This document shows, piece by piece, positions 3,407 to 7,234 of a DNA stretch of 64,000 bases. Position numbers and translations under genes: made by a program. This DNA is from Natronolimnobius baerhuensis. Its GTDB lineage: Archaea; Halobacteriota; Halobacteria; Halobacteriales; Natrialbaceae. Below the pieces are notes generated by a model. The model ran no database searches and was not told the DNA's origin. It saw nothing but the letters and a program-made list of their open reading frames with translations. Within the stretch, counting starts at the first letter, position 1. Each line of letters begins with the position of its first letter. Where the stretch lies: NCBI RefSeq assembly GCF_002177135.1, contig NZ_MWPH01000003.1:310001-374000 (forward strand), read 5' to 3'.

Positions 3407-3510
3407 GGGCACGTAGCTCAGTCCGGAAAGAGCGTCGGACTTCTATCCTCGCCGCGTTTGCGGTGGGGGAAGACATCCGACGGTCGTGGGTTCAAATCCC
3501 ATCGTGCCCG
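3407..3510 (+). tRNA. tRNA-Arg (anticodon UCU) with an intron
   Basis: Acceptor strand GGGCACG (3407-3413) pairs with CGTGCCC (3503-3509), discriminator G3510. The D stem is GCTC/GAGC, and the T arm contains GGTTCAAATCC. The anticodon stem TCGGA (3435-3439) pairs with TCCGA (3476-3480) and the loop reads C-T-TCT-A plus A3475, giving anticodon TCT for Arg. A 29-base intron (3446-3474) sits after position 37, the standard archaeal site, and can be cut by the bulge-helix-bulge endonuclease. The mature tRNA would be 75 bases; CCA is not encoded. Its 3' end is duplicated downstream, the signature of an integration site. Confidence 0.92.
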
Positions 3511-3611
3511 TGAAGCCGCCGAGTACTACGAGGCGTGCTGAACGCAGCACGCAGGGGATTTGAATCAGGGAGCTGCTTGCTGCGACCGTGGTTCAAATCC
3601 CATCGTGCCCG
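3489..3611 (+). repeat. att-like direct repeat of the tRNA-Arg 3' end
   Basis: A 22-base sequence covering the tRNA T arm and acceptor end (3489-3510) is repeated exactly at 3590-3611. Between them lie an 8-bp hairpin (3533-3540 with 3545-3552) and a GGGATTTGAA/TTCAAATCCC inverted repeat (3555-3564 with 3592-3601). Such 3'-tRNA duplications are left by tyrosine-integrase elements that integrate into tRNA genes. Only about 80 bases separate the copies, so any element once between them has been lost, or the second copy belongs to the AT-rich island that follows. No integrase gene is visible. Confidence 0.75.
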
Positions 3612-3965
3612 AACCGTTGTGAACGGGTTTCACCGTTTATTGGAGACTGGCCTCGAGCGTACGTCTATTCTGCTTTTACCAAGAAGCACCGTAATCTGTT
3701 TGAGAACTTCAGGTGTTGATTTGTACTCGAGGGCGGGGTTGCTGGGTCAATCTCGCTACCCCGCTGCGAGGCCGGTTCAATCTGGGAAAATGCTCCTTCC
3801 CGGGTGTCCTAAGGAAACAAAGCCGAGAAATACATCGCCCCGCTCCACCTTCGTATTCAACTTTCCAGTTGAATCATATGAAATATAGGAAAAACATCAC
3901 TATGTGGCTTACAGCAATAAAATAGTGCGGGTTATTTTCCCACTTTAAAATTTGAGTTAATACTG
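3612..3965. other. Intergenic, AT-rich transition with no gene
   Basis: About 350 bases between the second att-like repeat and the stop of the AlbA_2 gene. Base composition changes along it from normal genome GC to strongly AT-rich after about 3850. Short frames here have no codon bias or start signals. It is probably degraded island DNA. Confidence 0.5.
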
Positions 3966-5312
3966 CTATTCTACCCTGTCGTCAATCAAATACCTCAATT
4001 CATCCAGTTTATTTTCAATTTGGAATAGCTTTCTATTAGGGAGACTCTCTTCAAACTGTTCCCAGTCATATCTGTCTACCACTATGTTCGCGATCTCTTC
4101 ACTATAAAATTTACTAGTCATATATCCATTATAGTCTTGCTCTGGATATGCAAATTCTGTAGACATTTGGATTGACCCAGTAATTGTTCTCTTTGACCCA
4201 TCGACTCTCTCATGTGGGTTTCCTGTATTTGATTTAGATTCAGGATGCTCTTCAGGTAACCCTGTTTGGCTACTATGCCAGTTTATCTTTAGTACAATCT
4301 CGAACTCATTTTCCAAATATATATTTATTTCTGATATATCTTCGGAGACCTCCACTTCCCCACCTTTTGGAATAAACAAGCCAGTCTTATCTTGGTCTGT
4401 GAAATATAGATCTTCATTTAATTCAGACAAGCATTCCTCAAAGTCAAATCCGATTTCATCAAGTAGTACCTCATCTTTTATTTTCAATGTACTCAGGTCA
4501 TAGCTCTCAAACTCATATCCTTTGTTTATATCTATATCACTTACCTTTTCATTAATTGATTTCTGCATTTGATCATGGGATCGAATATTCAATCTATGTA
4601 GTATGGATATAATCAAAGCTCTTCGGAATAATGCATGATACATAGTATAGCCGCTTTCCGGATCATCCAGAACTTTTGCTATCTCTTCACTGAAGTTAGA
4701 AAGATAGTCATATAAATCGTTCATTCTTAGGAAATATATCGGAGTTGGCGAAACGCTCAACGGTTCATAATCGTGAGTATGGAAATATTTAACAAGAGAT
4801 GAAGTTTCAAGTTCTAAGTCAGGGTTTTCGTGGAAAAGCGAGACTAACTCTCCGTCAGTAACCAAGCGGGTTGAGTCGCCCGATCTTATCCTATATTCTC
4901 TTTTCCTAATATTTCCATCTGAGCGCTCAGTGACAGCAATTGGTGGAGAATTTGCCCTTTGTAAGACATTTAACACTAACACACATCCCGCAGATAAATC
5001 ATTGCTTTGATTTGAATAGAAATTATGAGAAAAATCCACTGTTGGACTACACCTAGCATTCGCTATTTCAGAGATTGTGCTGAGACATTCACTTTCGATT
5101 AAATTGACGCCTTCAGGTTCTCTATCGTCGTCTACGCCAAATATGATTTTTCCACCGCGATGGTTCGCAAAGCCAGCAAGATGTTTTGCTATCTTATATC
5201 TATTTTCCCCATCAGGATTCGTCAGCAATTCTGAACTTTTGAAGTCTACTTTATCATTCTCATCATGCTGCAGCAAATCCCACAACTTTTCATTGTTTAT
5301 GAGTACCGACAT
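3966..5312 (-). CDS. AlbA_2 (Schlafen-type DNA-binding) domain protein
   Basis: 448 residues. The N-terminal ~130 residues show the AlbA_2/Schlafen pattern: VDFKSSELL, then KHLAGFANHRGGKIIFGVDDD and a PEGVNL segment, followed by a strand pair ending in a VL(V)LNV element. This domain is found in predicted DNA- or RNA-binding regulators and in some phage-defence genes. The C-terminal ~300 residues show no family I recognise; in particular I see no HATPase domain. Base composition is far more AT-rich than the flanking genes, with codons such as ATA and AGA that are rare elsewhere here, which indicates horizontal transfer. It lies next to a tRNA integration scar. Regulation or defence are both possible roles. 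Confidence 0.78.
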   Translation of the reverse strand: MSVLINNEKLWDLLQHDENDKVDFKSSELLTNPDGENRYKIAKHLAGFANHRGGKIIFGVDDDREPEGVNLIESECLSTISEIANARCSPTVDFSHNFYSNQSNDLSAGCVLVLNVLQRANSPPIAVTERSDGNIRKREYRIRSGDSTRLVTDGELVSLFHENPDLELETSSLVKYFHTHDYEPLSVSPTPIYFLRMNDLYDYLSNFSEEIAKVLDDPESGYTMYHALFRRALIISILHRLNIRSHDQMQKSINEKVSDIDINKGYEFESYDLSTLKIKDEVLLDEIGFDFEECLSELNEDLYFTDQDKTGLFIPKGGEVEVSEDISEINIYLENEFEIVLKINWHSSQTGLPEEHPESKSNTGNPHERVDGSKRTITGSIQMSTEFAYPEQDYNGYMTSKFYSEEIANIVVDRYDWEQFEESLPNRKLFQIENKLDELRYLIDDRVE

Positions 5313-5528: not shown

Positions 5529-6083
5529 ATGTTACGTCGCCAGTTTTTCACAACGGCAACTCTCTGCGGGATTGTTGGAACAGTCGGCTGTCTAAGCGGG
5601 AACAATGGTGACGAAACCACTGACACCAACGACAGCGATTCGGAATCTGATCAAGAAACTGACGACGAGGATGACGAACCCGAACACTGTGAGATTGCGT
5701 CCAGAGACGAACAGGGAACTGCCGATCCAATCGAGGAATCAGCCACCGTCGACGCGGATGAAGTCGATTCAGCAGCGTGTGGAACGAAAAGTGCTGAAGC
5801 CGCACTTACGGAATTAGACGACCAACTCGAGATCAGCATTGCGGGCGAACCCTGGGTTGATCCGCAGTTTATGCAACGGGATGGCGAGGAACTCGCGGTG
5901 GTTTCTGTGTCGACAGTTGGCTCTGGTGGTGAGAAAACGATCTGTCCAGATCCAGACTGGGATTTTGATAAGGCGCTTGCGGTGTTGCCTCGAAAAGTCA
6001 CGCTCAATGTATCTACTGCTACTGAGACCAGCGAGTGTACGTTTGAGACGAGGCTGCAACAACAGGAACTGTGGGAGGGCTAA
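5529..6083 (+). CDS. Tat lipoprotein, unknown function
   Basis: 184 residues. The N-terminus MLRRQFFTTATLCGIVGTVGC has a twin arginine, a hydrophobic core and a lipobox Cys21, so it should be exported and lipid-anchored. A long Asp/Glu/Ser/Thr linker (about residues 26-50) is followed by a globular region of ~130 residues with four cysteines (around HCEIAS, AACGTK, TICPDP and SECTFE) that could form disulfides outside the cell. No known domain recognised. TATA-like sequences lie just upstream in an AT-rich stretch (5480-5510). It belongs to, or borders, the low-GC island. Confidence 0.72.
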   Translation: MLRRQFFTTATLCGIVGTVGCLSGNNGDETTDTNDSDSESDQETDDEDDEPEHCEIASRDEQGTADPIEESATVDADEVDSAACGTKSAEAALTELDDQLEISIAGEPWVDPQFMQRDGEELAVVSVSTVGSGGEKTICPDPDWDFDKALAVLPRKVTLNVSTATETSECTFETRLQQQELWEG

Positions 6084-6160
6084 CGAGAGTCTCGTTTCTG
6101 AGTGCCTATCAAGCACACCTCCCTGACAGCAGATACTGTTTTCTCCCTGCCCGTGAACCG

Positions 6161-6280
6161 TAGATATAAGTCACAACATGACAATAAAACAACCGGAAGC
6201 CAAACCGGGCATGAGTGAAATGCCCCGGGTGTTAGAGGCACCCGAGACGGCTTCCAAAACCCGCTCCGGGTTTTGCAAGC
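6161..6280 (+). ncRNA. Candidate structured small RNA with its own promoter
   Basis: A TATA-like box (GATATAAG, ~6163-6170) is followed about 25 bases later by a compact fold. P1 pairs 6195-6201 with 6249-6255 (GGAAGCC/GGCTTCC, 7 bp). Inside it are P2 (6207-6212 with 6220-6225, GGGCAT/ATGCCC, 7-base loop) and P3 (6227-6231 with 6239-6243, GGGTG/CACCC, 7-base loop), forming a three-way junction. P4 (6256-6262 with 6268-6274, AAAACCC/GGGTTTT) follows directly and could act as a terminator. No protein frame fits the region. It could be a free small RNA, a structured leader of the gene at 6375, or the end of a lost mobile element. Confidence 0.45.
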
Positions 6281-6374
6281 ATGATTCCGTTCATTCTACC
6301 GGGACATAAACATCCCGCACGACAGTTGAATCGCTCCCCTCGAGAGAGCCATCCACACCCAGCGGCAACAGCCG

Positions 6375-6716
6375 ATGGCCGCTGATCGCGATGGGGAACC
6401 GGACTGTGGCACAAATGTAGACGCCGACGGCGGAACAGACTCGGACGCCGGTGAGAGAACTGACTCGAGGCCCGACACGGACACAGACTCCGACACGGAC
6501 GCAGACGACTCCAACACGGACGCCAACCCAGACACGGACACCAACCCAGACTCGAGTCAATCCCAACCGCTCTCGAGGACGCCCTCGAGTTGCCCCTGCC
6601 CGGCCTGTGACGGCCGCATTGCGGGCGTGACGGTTCTCGGGCCGACAACGGCGTTCGCCCGCCCCTGTGGCTGTCGGGTGGCACCGGAGGTGTTGCACCA
6701 ACTCGACGAGGACTGA
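6375..6716 (+). CDS. Acidic low-complexity protein with a Cys-rich tail
   Basis: 113 residues. The first ~70 are dominated by Asp, Thr, Ser and Asn with DTDTDSDTD-type repeats, typical of disordered halophilic linkers. The last ~40 residues are quite different: CPCPACDG, then a hydrophobic segment with VTVLGPTTAFARP, then CGCRV. Five cysteines in this arrangement suggest a small metal-binding (probably zinc) module. The gene lies 86 bases upstream of sufU on the same strand. The conserved-looking tail supports a real gene; function unknown. Confidence 0.6.
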   Translation: MAADRDGEPDCGTNVDADGGTDSDAGERTDSRPDTDTDSDTDADDSNTDANPDTDTNPDSSQSQPLSRTPSSCPCPACDGRIAGVTVLGPTTAFARPCGCRVAPEVLHQLDED

Positions 6717-6802
6717 ACCCACGGCAAACGGGGACGCACTCGAGTCTGCGACACACAACCCCGGAACCCTTTTACAGCAGACAGCCGTATCCGTGTGCAA
6801 CG

Positions 6803-7234
6803 ATGGGACTGGGCTCGGATATGTACCGACAGCAGATCCTCGACCACTACAAAAACCCGCGTAACTACGGGCAACTCGAGGAGCCGACGTTTACCCACAT
6901 CGGCGAGAATCCAATGTGCGGCGACGAGATCCGCATGGATGTCACACTCGCCGACGAGGACGACGGCGAGACACAGACAATCGAGCGCGTCGCCTTCTCC
7001 GGCGACGGCTGTGCGATCAGCCAGGCCTCCGCGAGCATGCTCTCGACGAAATTGCAGGGGAAAACGCTCGAGGAACTGCTCGAGATGGATCGCGACGATA
7101 TCATCGACATGCTCGGTGTCGACATCTCCCCAATGCGAGTCAAGTGTGCGGTGCTCGCCGAGAAGGTCGCCCAAGATGGCGCAGAGATCTATCAGGGCGA
7201 ACTCGACGTGGAGAAGACGACGACTGAAGACTAA
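6803..7234 (+). CDS. sufU: Iron-sulfur cluster scaffold, SufU/IscU family
   Basis: 143 residues. The protein begins MYRQQILDHYKNPRNYG after six residues, a signature of IscU/SufU scaffolds. The three cluster- or zinc-binding cysteines are present: Cys39 in NPMCGD (with Asp41), Cys70 in GDGCAIS and Cys115 in VKCAVL. The spacing between Cys70 and Cys115 fits the SufU type rather than the shorter IscU. Proteins of this family assemble Fe-S clusters, or accept sulfur from the SufS desulfurase, in the cytoplasm. The other suf genes are not in the window. Confidence 0.92.
   Translation: MGLGSDMYRQQILDHYKNPRNYGQLEEPTFTHIGENPMCGDEIRMDVTLADEDDGETQTIERVAFSGDGCAISQASASMLSTKLQGKTLEELLEMDRDDIIDMLGVDISPMRVKCAVLAEKVAQDGAEIYQGELDVEKTTTED

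What the first reader, a model, noticed from the sequence alone, without database searches (positions are those of the whole stretch)
6161..6280. Candidate small RNA with three-way junction beside the AT-rich island
A TATA-like box is followed ~25 bases later by a three-helix junction and a separate 7-bp hairpin (pairs given in the feature entry), all with perfect stems, in a region with no plausible protein. It may be a novel haloarchaeal small RNA, a structured leader for the acidic Cys-rich protein at 6375, or the end of a lost transposon.
Basis: partly seen in the sequence, partly recalled or inferred. Interest (0 to 1): 0.6.

Follow-up and report, generated by a model that had tools for sequence, protein, structure and literature searches.

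The report
Haloarchaeal start-codon RNA switch family
A folded RNA in front of a small zinc-protein gene turns out to be one copy of an undescribed RNA family found across the salt-loving archaea, and covariation shows it can take either of two mutually exclusive shapes, one of which ties up the sequence next to the start codon, so it is probably a gene switch.

Summary
The promoter, three-way junction and hairpin at 6161-6280 belong to a multicopy family: 4 close copies in this genome, 6 in the sister species, and matches in 268 of 391 Halobacteria genomes (77 of 86 genera). None of about 200 other genomes of the phylum matched. Covariation proves the fold: across 95 sequences all six helices covary. 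New finding: the bases just before the start codon (6281) repeat the 5' strand of the junction's closing helix. The helix's 3' strand can therefore close the junction or pair next to AUG, not both. In distant relatives this second pairing covaries too. Downstream lies not "no protein" but a short ORF (6281-6385) whose stop overlaps the start of the Cys-rich zinc-ribbon gene at 6375 (55 of 56 copies). A further hairpin sits just after AUG. Other copies precede SWIM zinc-finger, PadR, TFIIB-repeat and other genes, including on small plasmids. No Rfam family matches. Most likely it is a translational RNA switch, a riboswitch or protein-bound leader. The signal, the direction of switching and transcription itself are untested. 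Structured leaders were reported as not typical in haloarchaea.

The parts
6163..6170 (+). TATA-like box GATATAAG (promoter of the leader transcript)
   Evidence: Same 8-mer with at most 2 mismatches in 142 of 149 close copies, at 32 nt before P1 in 137 of them. Conserved among paralogues while the flanks diverge. Transcription itself not measured.
6195..6201 (+). P1 5' strand, GGAAGCC (closing helix of the three-way junction)
   Evidence: Fold; P1 97.3% paired in close relatives, 93.3% class-wide with all 9 pairs changing on both sides somewhere.
6207..6225 (+). P2 hairpin (6207-6212 with 6220-6225) with conserved AA in its loop
6226..6244 (+). P3 hairpin (6226-6231 with 6239-6244), stacked directly on P2
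   Evidence: 99.5% of cells paired, 99.3% class-wide
6249..6255 (+). P1 3' strand GGCTTCC: the switching strand, pairs either with 6195-6201 or, through 6250-6253 and 6255, with 6275-6280
   Evidence: Fold of both states; covariation of both pairings
6256..6274 (+). P4 hairpin (6256-6262 with 6268-6274), core of the alternative start-adjacent hairpin
   Evidence: All 7 pairs change on both sides among relatives
6275..6280 (+). Pre-start segment GCAAGC: AAGC (6277-6280) repeats P1 5' sequence and pairs with 6250-6253 in the alternative state
   Evidence: 154 of 155 close copies can form at least 4 pairs here; mean 5.4 against 2.8 with the segment shuffled. Covariation in distant relatives.
6281..6385 (+). 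Short ORF (34 codons, MIPFILPGHKHPARQLNRSPRESHPHPAATADGR), first codons overlap P5; stop lies inside the start of the zinc-ribbon gene
   Evidence: AUG kept in 153 of 155 copies. First in-frame stop overlaps the zinc gene's start in 55 of 56 copies, against 2 and 0 of 56 in the other two frames.
6300..6317 (+). P5 hairpin (6300-6304 with 6313-6317) 19 nt after the start of the AUG, followed by ACGA
   Evidence: 98.6% paired; 91.3% class-wide with all 6 pairs changing on both sides
6375..6716 (+). Small acidic zinc-ribbon protein gene (CPxC ... PCGCRV), second cistron
   Evidence: Paralogue downstream of nearly every close copy. No Pfam family.

Best explanation
It is a cis-acting translational RNA switch in the 5' leader of a bicistronic mRNA, and a copy of a class-wide haloarchaeal RNA family. 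Transcription starts about 25 nt after the TATA box. The leader first folds into a three-way junction (P1-P2-P3) followed by P4. In that state the six bases before the AUG at 6281 are free, so the short ORF is translated and the zinc-ribbon gene is reached by termination-reinitiation (stop and start overlap). If P1 opens, its 3' strand pairs instead with the bases directly before AUG, making P4 a long hairpin that abuts the start codon and blocks initiation. A signal shared by many genes (a small ligand, a metal ion, or an RNA-binding protein recognising the junction) decides between the two states. Shown here: the fold, the second pairing and its covariation, the fixed position before AUG, the promoter, the overlap of the two ORFs. 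Inferred: that the RNA is made, that P1 formed means ON, and that translation is the step controlled. Unknown: the signal.
For: Multicopy family. Class-wide distribution with 0 of about 200 non-halobacterial genomes of the phylum as control. Helices covary. The second pairing is near universal in close copies and covaries in distant ones: in 53 distant copies the mean uninterrupted Watson-Crick run is 5.13 against 3.84 when the pre-start segments are dealt out anew (largest of 1000 dealings 4.40), with 37 copies of 5 or more against 12. The same holds in 22 further copies: 5.45 against 4.03, largest of 2000 dealings 4.91. Examples of all three strands changing together: L070 GGAAAC/GGTTTC/GAAACC, L311 GGATTC/GAATCC in this very genome, L250 GCCTTCT/AGAAGGC, L257 GGTCTTC/GAAGACC, L261 GGGTTC/GAACCC. 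Both states have close energies: -52.0 and -47.1 kcal/mol here, mean gap 5.0 over 150 copies. Promoter spacing and the stop/start overlap. Independently annotated starts of a hypothetical protein and a SWIM protein coincide with the AUG of plasmid copies.
Against: No transcript, TSS or expression data were available for any copy. The second pairing is short (4-9 bp) and a few copies do it poorly (L302, L295, L273, L276, L278). Part of the pre-start similarity within close relatives is shared ancestry. Unrelated downstream genes do not name a ligand. One subtype has a P1 sequence that differs from the start-adjacent hairpin (L246, L285, L328), where the exclusivity is less clear.
Confidence: 0.77

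Rival explanations
1. The leader is a constitutive structural element (mRNA stability, ribosome standby or fixed damping of translation). The similarity of the pre-start bases to P1 sets a fixed equilibrium and nothing is sensed.
For: The junction is favoured by about 5 kcal/mol in most copies. Downstream genes are diverse.
Against: Mutually exclusive pairing kept by covariation through independent sequence changes, and a class-wide conserved core (P3 closing UG/CA, AA in L2, C in J3/1), are more than a fixed leader needs.
Confidence: 0.12
2. The leader is bound by a protein, for example autogenously by its own zinc-ribbon product or by one shared RNA-binding protein, rather than by a small ligand.
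For: 26 of 28 zinc-ribbon genes in four genomes sit behind a copy. Many other downstream products carry Cys/His metal motifs: 15 of 29 first ORFs against 6 of 52 window ORFs, though the families are not independent. This is a version of the best explanation with the signal named.
Against: Downstream families are unrelated (zinc ribbons, SWIM, PadR, TFIIB repeat, integrase), so simple autogenous control by each own product is hard to generalise.
Confidence: 0.35
3. The transcript is processed and the junction acts as a free trans-acting small RNA.
For: Compact, stable, multicopy RNA with its own promoter.
Against: AUG invariant, pre-start pairing, P5 inside the ORF and a gene behind each copy; loops are variable, with no conserved seed.
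Confidence: 0.06
4. It is the end of a degenerate transposon or another mobile repeat.
For: Multicopy. Some divergent copies sit on small plasmids next to integrases, one precedes an integrase-like gene, and a few genomes carry near-identical duplicates.
Against: Similarity in the copies is confined to promoter, leader and gene, with unrelated flanks. Sequences have diverged under structural constraint. No transposase, no repeat boundary.
Confidence: 0.03

Closest known systems
Translational riboswitches (bacterial, start-site sequestering; in archaea the fluoride riboswitch of Thermococcus kodakarensis, reported in PMC8241225 as the only experimentally determined archaeal one)
   Same: Conserved receptor-like junction in the 5' leader, a strand shared by two exclusive helices, one of them at the initiation site.
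   Different: No ligand known, no Rfam class matches, no Shine-Dalgarno is masked (the bases directly before AUG are), a second hairpin lies after AUG, and the family is limited to Halobacteria in these searches.
Ribosomal-protein and other autogenous protein-binding leaders
   Same: Structured leader before the gene of a small, possibly nucleic-acid-binding protein.
   Different: Controls many unrelated families rather than one; binding untested.
brz-brb and bp4-OE2447F bicistrons of Halobacterium salinarum (PMC3184054, PMC2253796)
   Same: A small basic ORF overlapping the gene of a small acidic CPxCG zinc-finger protein in one transcript (7-bp overlap for bp4-OE2447F).
   Different: In bp4-OE2447F the published TSS lies about 134 nt before the zinc gene, leaving no room for a 90-nt leader before the 45-codon ORF. 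Those genes are next to bat-like genes; the window copy is next to nifU-like and lipoprotein-like genes.
Haloferax C(P)XCG zinc-finger micro-proteins (PMC11241148, PMC6562870)
   Same: Same broad kind of small Cys-rich product.
   Different: This subfamily has one CPxC and one PCGC motif and a dedicated RNA leader; no Pfam family matches the window protein.
Termination-reinitiation gene pairs (PMC6728339)
   Same: Overlapping stop and start; coupling was shown for 9 of 9 Haloferax volcanii pairs tested there.
   Different: Here the upstream ORF is tiny and itself sits behind an RNA switch; coupling not tested.

Membership tests
Riboswitch | Conserved structured receptor domain supported by covariation | tested here: met
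Riboswitch | Lies in the 5' untranslated leader of the gene it serves | tested here: inconclusive
   Promoter-like box at fixed distance and AUG at fixed place; no mapped transcript available
Riboswitch | Expression platform with mutually exclusive pairing | tested here: met
Riboswitch | Direct binding of a small ligand or ion without protein | not testable with these tools
   Needs in-line probing or ITC
Riboswitch | Ligand-dependent change of gene expression | not testable with these tools
   Needs reporter assays
Any described RNA family (Rfam 15) | Covariance-model match at the gathering score | tested here: not met
   No match in 6161-6330 or in 20 distant loci; none with E up to 5 in 5900-6800
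bp4-OE2447F-type bicistron | Small ORF overlapping the start of an acidic zinc-finger gene | tested here: met
   55 of 56 copies
bp4-OE2447F-type bicistron | Located beside a bat/boa regulator gene | tested here: not met
   Window neighbours are a NifU_N protein at 6803-7234 and an unrelated ORF at 5529-6083
Transposon end | Repeat boundaries or a transposase, gene-independent insertion | tested here: not met
   Copies are aligned over promoter, leader and gene with unrelated flanks
Free trans-acting sRNA | Discrete transcript independent of a downstream ORF | not testable with these tools
   No RNA-seq; invariant AUG and the downstream genes argue against it

The most novel reading that the evidence does not exclude
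This is a new class of natural riboswitch, the first widespread one in haloarchaea, whose three-way junction directly senses a small molecule or ion (a metal such as zinc is one guess, given the zinc-binding products of many controlled genes) and frees or seals the start codon of dozens of unrelated small-protein genes per class.
Probability: 0.3. Interest if true: 0.95.

Novelty: new variant of a known kind. Interest (0 to 1): 0.86.

Why it matters
[quoted passage not shown] Only one archaeal riboswitch was said to be experimentally established (PMC8241225). Here is a leader RNA in about two thirds of sampled Halobacteria genomes, often in several copies, with covariation for two exclusive structures at the start codon. 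If it switches, it is a large unrecognised layer of gene control in archaea, it gives a native part for expression control in salt-loving hosts, and it gives a handle on the function of many uncharacterised zinc micro-proteins. The question is directly testable with simple reporter mutants.

Tried and rejected
Rfam, on the window, at relaxed threshold around the element, and on 20 distant loci: nothing. Pfam and NCBIfam for the window zinc protein and the short peptides: only low-complexity Asp/Ser noise. Literature search for the conserved peptide or DNA string: none. Published structured-RNA surveys and riboswitch reviews: no haloarchaeal motif of this kind found in the held library. I considered that the conserved block after AUG reflects a conserved peptide (GYK[HR]PAR), but third codon positions are frozen (GGA TAT AAA) and distant copies keep the hairpin with other codons, so it is RNA structure. 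I considered the second TATAAA at 6303 as an internal promoter: not needed, it is the P5 loop, though not excluded. K-turn, H/ACA and C/D box readings of P2 were rejected by inspection (no conserved GA/AG tandem). Phage records: no DNA match. A viral contig scan for the close-family string gave one hit, not followed up. A peptide query to the genome collection was too short.

Full report
WHAT IS THERE. The interval reads exactly as reported. A TATA-like GATATAAG lies at 6163-6170; a three-way junction occupies 6195-6255; a 7-bp hairpin follows at 6256-6274. The fold is strongly better than dinucleotide shuffles (z -4.8). Directly behind, an AUG at 6281 opens a 34-codon ORF, and its stop (6383-6385) lies inside the start of the Cys-rich gene at 6375.

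IT IS A FAMILY. The DNA is present four times in this genome and six times in the one other genome of the genus held. Aligned copies share promoter, leader and the following gene and differ outside. An exact-pattern scan of named genomes gives Natrinema, Natrialba, Halopiger, Natronorubrum, Natrarchaeobius and Halostagnicola, so the window is from the same family, Natrialbaceae (inference from kinship labels). The scan also returned one Paraburkholderia contig, L124, presumably a chance match to the 19-mer.

CLASS-WIDE DISTRIBUTION. A covariance model from 59 copies (R1) finds matches in 109 of 391 Halobacteria genomes. A second model built from close and distant matches (R2) finds them in 268 of 391, in 77 of 86 genera and all sampled families with more than a few genomes. 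In a phylum-wide sample of 247 genomes, all 27 matches were in the same order and none of the roughly 200 other genomes matched at E 0.001. This is the control for chance matches. E-values of these models are rough.

COVARIATION. In 96 distinct close copies, 93.5% of pair cells are standard pairs, 18 of 34 pairs have changes on both sides, and 209 cells show such changes against 57 in shuffles. In 95 class-wide sequences the figures are 90.1% against 64.6%, 33 of 34 pairs and 639 cells against 190, with a covariation score of 0.488 against 0.132. Sliding partners by one to three columns drops the score to 0.05-0.09. All six bracketed helices take part, including P5 behind the AUG. These alignments were fitted to the model's structure, which leans them towards it; the slid control and the hand-read sequences make me confident all the same.

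THE SECOND STATE. The bases before the AUG repeat the 5' strand of P1: GGAAGCC and GAAGCC, GGAAGC or GCAAGC. Hence the P1 3' strand GGCTTCC can pair upstream, closing the junction, or downstream, extending P4 to the AUG. In 154 of 155 close copies the isolated downstream segment folds with at least four such pairs (mean 5.4, shuffled segment 2.8). The strong test is distant relatives, where P1 has other sequences. In 53 copies whose AUG was chosen without regard to pairing, the mean longest Watson-Crick run is 5.13 against 3.84 when the pre-start segments are dealt out anew (largest of 1000: 4.40). In 22 further copies found only with R2 or on plasmids it is 5.45 against 4.03 (largest of 2000: 4.91). 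Individual cases show the strands changing together, for example L250 GCCTTCT/AGAAGGC, L257 GGTCTTC/GAAGACC, L323 GGGTCGT/ACGACCC, L070 GGTTTC/GAAACC, and L311 GGATTC/GAATCC in the window's own genome. Neither model contains this second pairing, so the test is not circular, although R1 and R2 carry a weak sequence preference there. Predicted energies of the two states differ by 4.9 kcal/mol in the window and 5.0 on average.

DOWNSTREAM ORFS. In close copies the first in-frame stop of the short ORF overlaps the zinc gene's start (by 1 to 14 nt) in 55 of 56 cases, against 2 and 0 in the other frames, although the ORF's tail varies freely in length and sequence. This is the arrangement for which coupling by termination-reinitiation was shown in Haloferax (PMC6728339). 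The zinc genes encode a family with the consensus LPxCPxCGxPVxxVTVxGPxxAxAxPCGCRVxP. A profile search in four genomes finds 28 members, and by my matching of coordinates 26 lie just behind a copy of the RNA; for the other two (G001:C4:516930, weak; G009:C2:88917) no listed RNA match is near. In other families of the class the leader directly precedes different genes: SWIM zinc fingers, TFIIB-repeat and PadR proteins, several uncharacterised Cys-rich families, and in one case a short ORF followed by an integrase-like protein. Cys/His pair motifs are frequent among the first downstream ORFs: 15 of 29 against 6 of 52 ORFs of the window. These families are not independent samples.

PROMOTER. GATATAAG or a near variant lies 32 nt before P1 in 137 of 142 close copies where it was found. 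With usual archaeal spacing (established knowledge: start about 25 nt behind the TATA box) the transcript would begin just before P1, so the RNA would be a 5' leader of about 90 nt. No transcript data were available.

MECHANISM. I propose a translational switch. The junction folds first and is the more stable state, leaving the start region free. Opening of P1 lets its 3' strand seal the bases next to AUG. The junction is the natural site for a ligand or protein; conserved class-wide are the UG/CA pairs closing P3, AA in the P2 loop and a C before the P1 3' strand. Fold, exclusivity and place are shown; transcription, direction, step and signal are inferred or unknown. Because downstream genes are unrelated, a shared signal is more likely than separate autogenous control by each product.

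KNOWN OR NEW. No Rfam family matches. The held literature has no such element. It does record that structured leaders are thought atypical in haloarchaea (PMC4983044) and that one archaeal riboswitch is experimentally established (PMC8241225), with a c-di-AMP-like one predicted in Halobacterium salinarum. The bicistron resembles bp4-OE2447F of that species (PMC3184054), but there the mapped start leaves no room for the leader. I therefore call it a new family of a known kind, riboswitch-like leaders, without claiming it is a riboswitch.

Noticed in passing
L336:34046-34163 (Natrialba phage PhiCh1, AF440695): Weak R2 match (E 0.009) between the rep gene (ORF48) and ORF49. It has P1, P2, P3, the GCCTTC/GAAGGC exclusive pair and a P5-like hairpin GCGGGCgaattaacGCCCGC, but the frame after its GTG stops at once. 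Possibly a viral relative with lost or altered ORF.
   Followed up: partly
L331-L335 (plasmids of Halalkalicoccus jeotgali B3, Halorientalis litorea, Halomarina sp. BCD28, Halalkalicoccus sp. FCH27): The leader occurs on plasmids down to 9-11 kb, there before a 55- or 62-codon gene followed by a site-specific integrase gene. On the 7-kb Halalkalicoccus jeotgali plasmid 6 there is a blastn-level similarity that the R2 model did not report.
   Followed up: partly
L327 (G015:C1:1342351-1342493): Leader, then a 30-codon ORF overlapping (ATGA) a gene with a phage-integrase SAM-like domain: the same bicistronic layout with a recombinase as second gene.
   Followed up: no
window 3407-5312: A tRNA gene interrupted by an apparent intron (3407-3510; Rfam finds it, ARAGORN does not) is followed by an AT-rich island holding a SLFN/AlbA_2 protein (3966-5312, minus strand), which looks like an integrated foreign segment.
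   Followed up: no
upstream of distant copies, e.g. L255, L256, L291, L293, L302: Many distant copies have repeated or palindromic sequences around the TATA box (for example CAATTGCTA...TAGCAATTG-like pairs), suggesting operator sites for a DNA-binding regulator in addition to the RNA leader.
   Followed up: no
L077 and L037: Tandem second copies about 500 bp away look degenerate: one lost its AUG (ACG) and neither is followed by an intact zinc gene, i.e. decaying duplicates.
   Followed up: no
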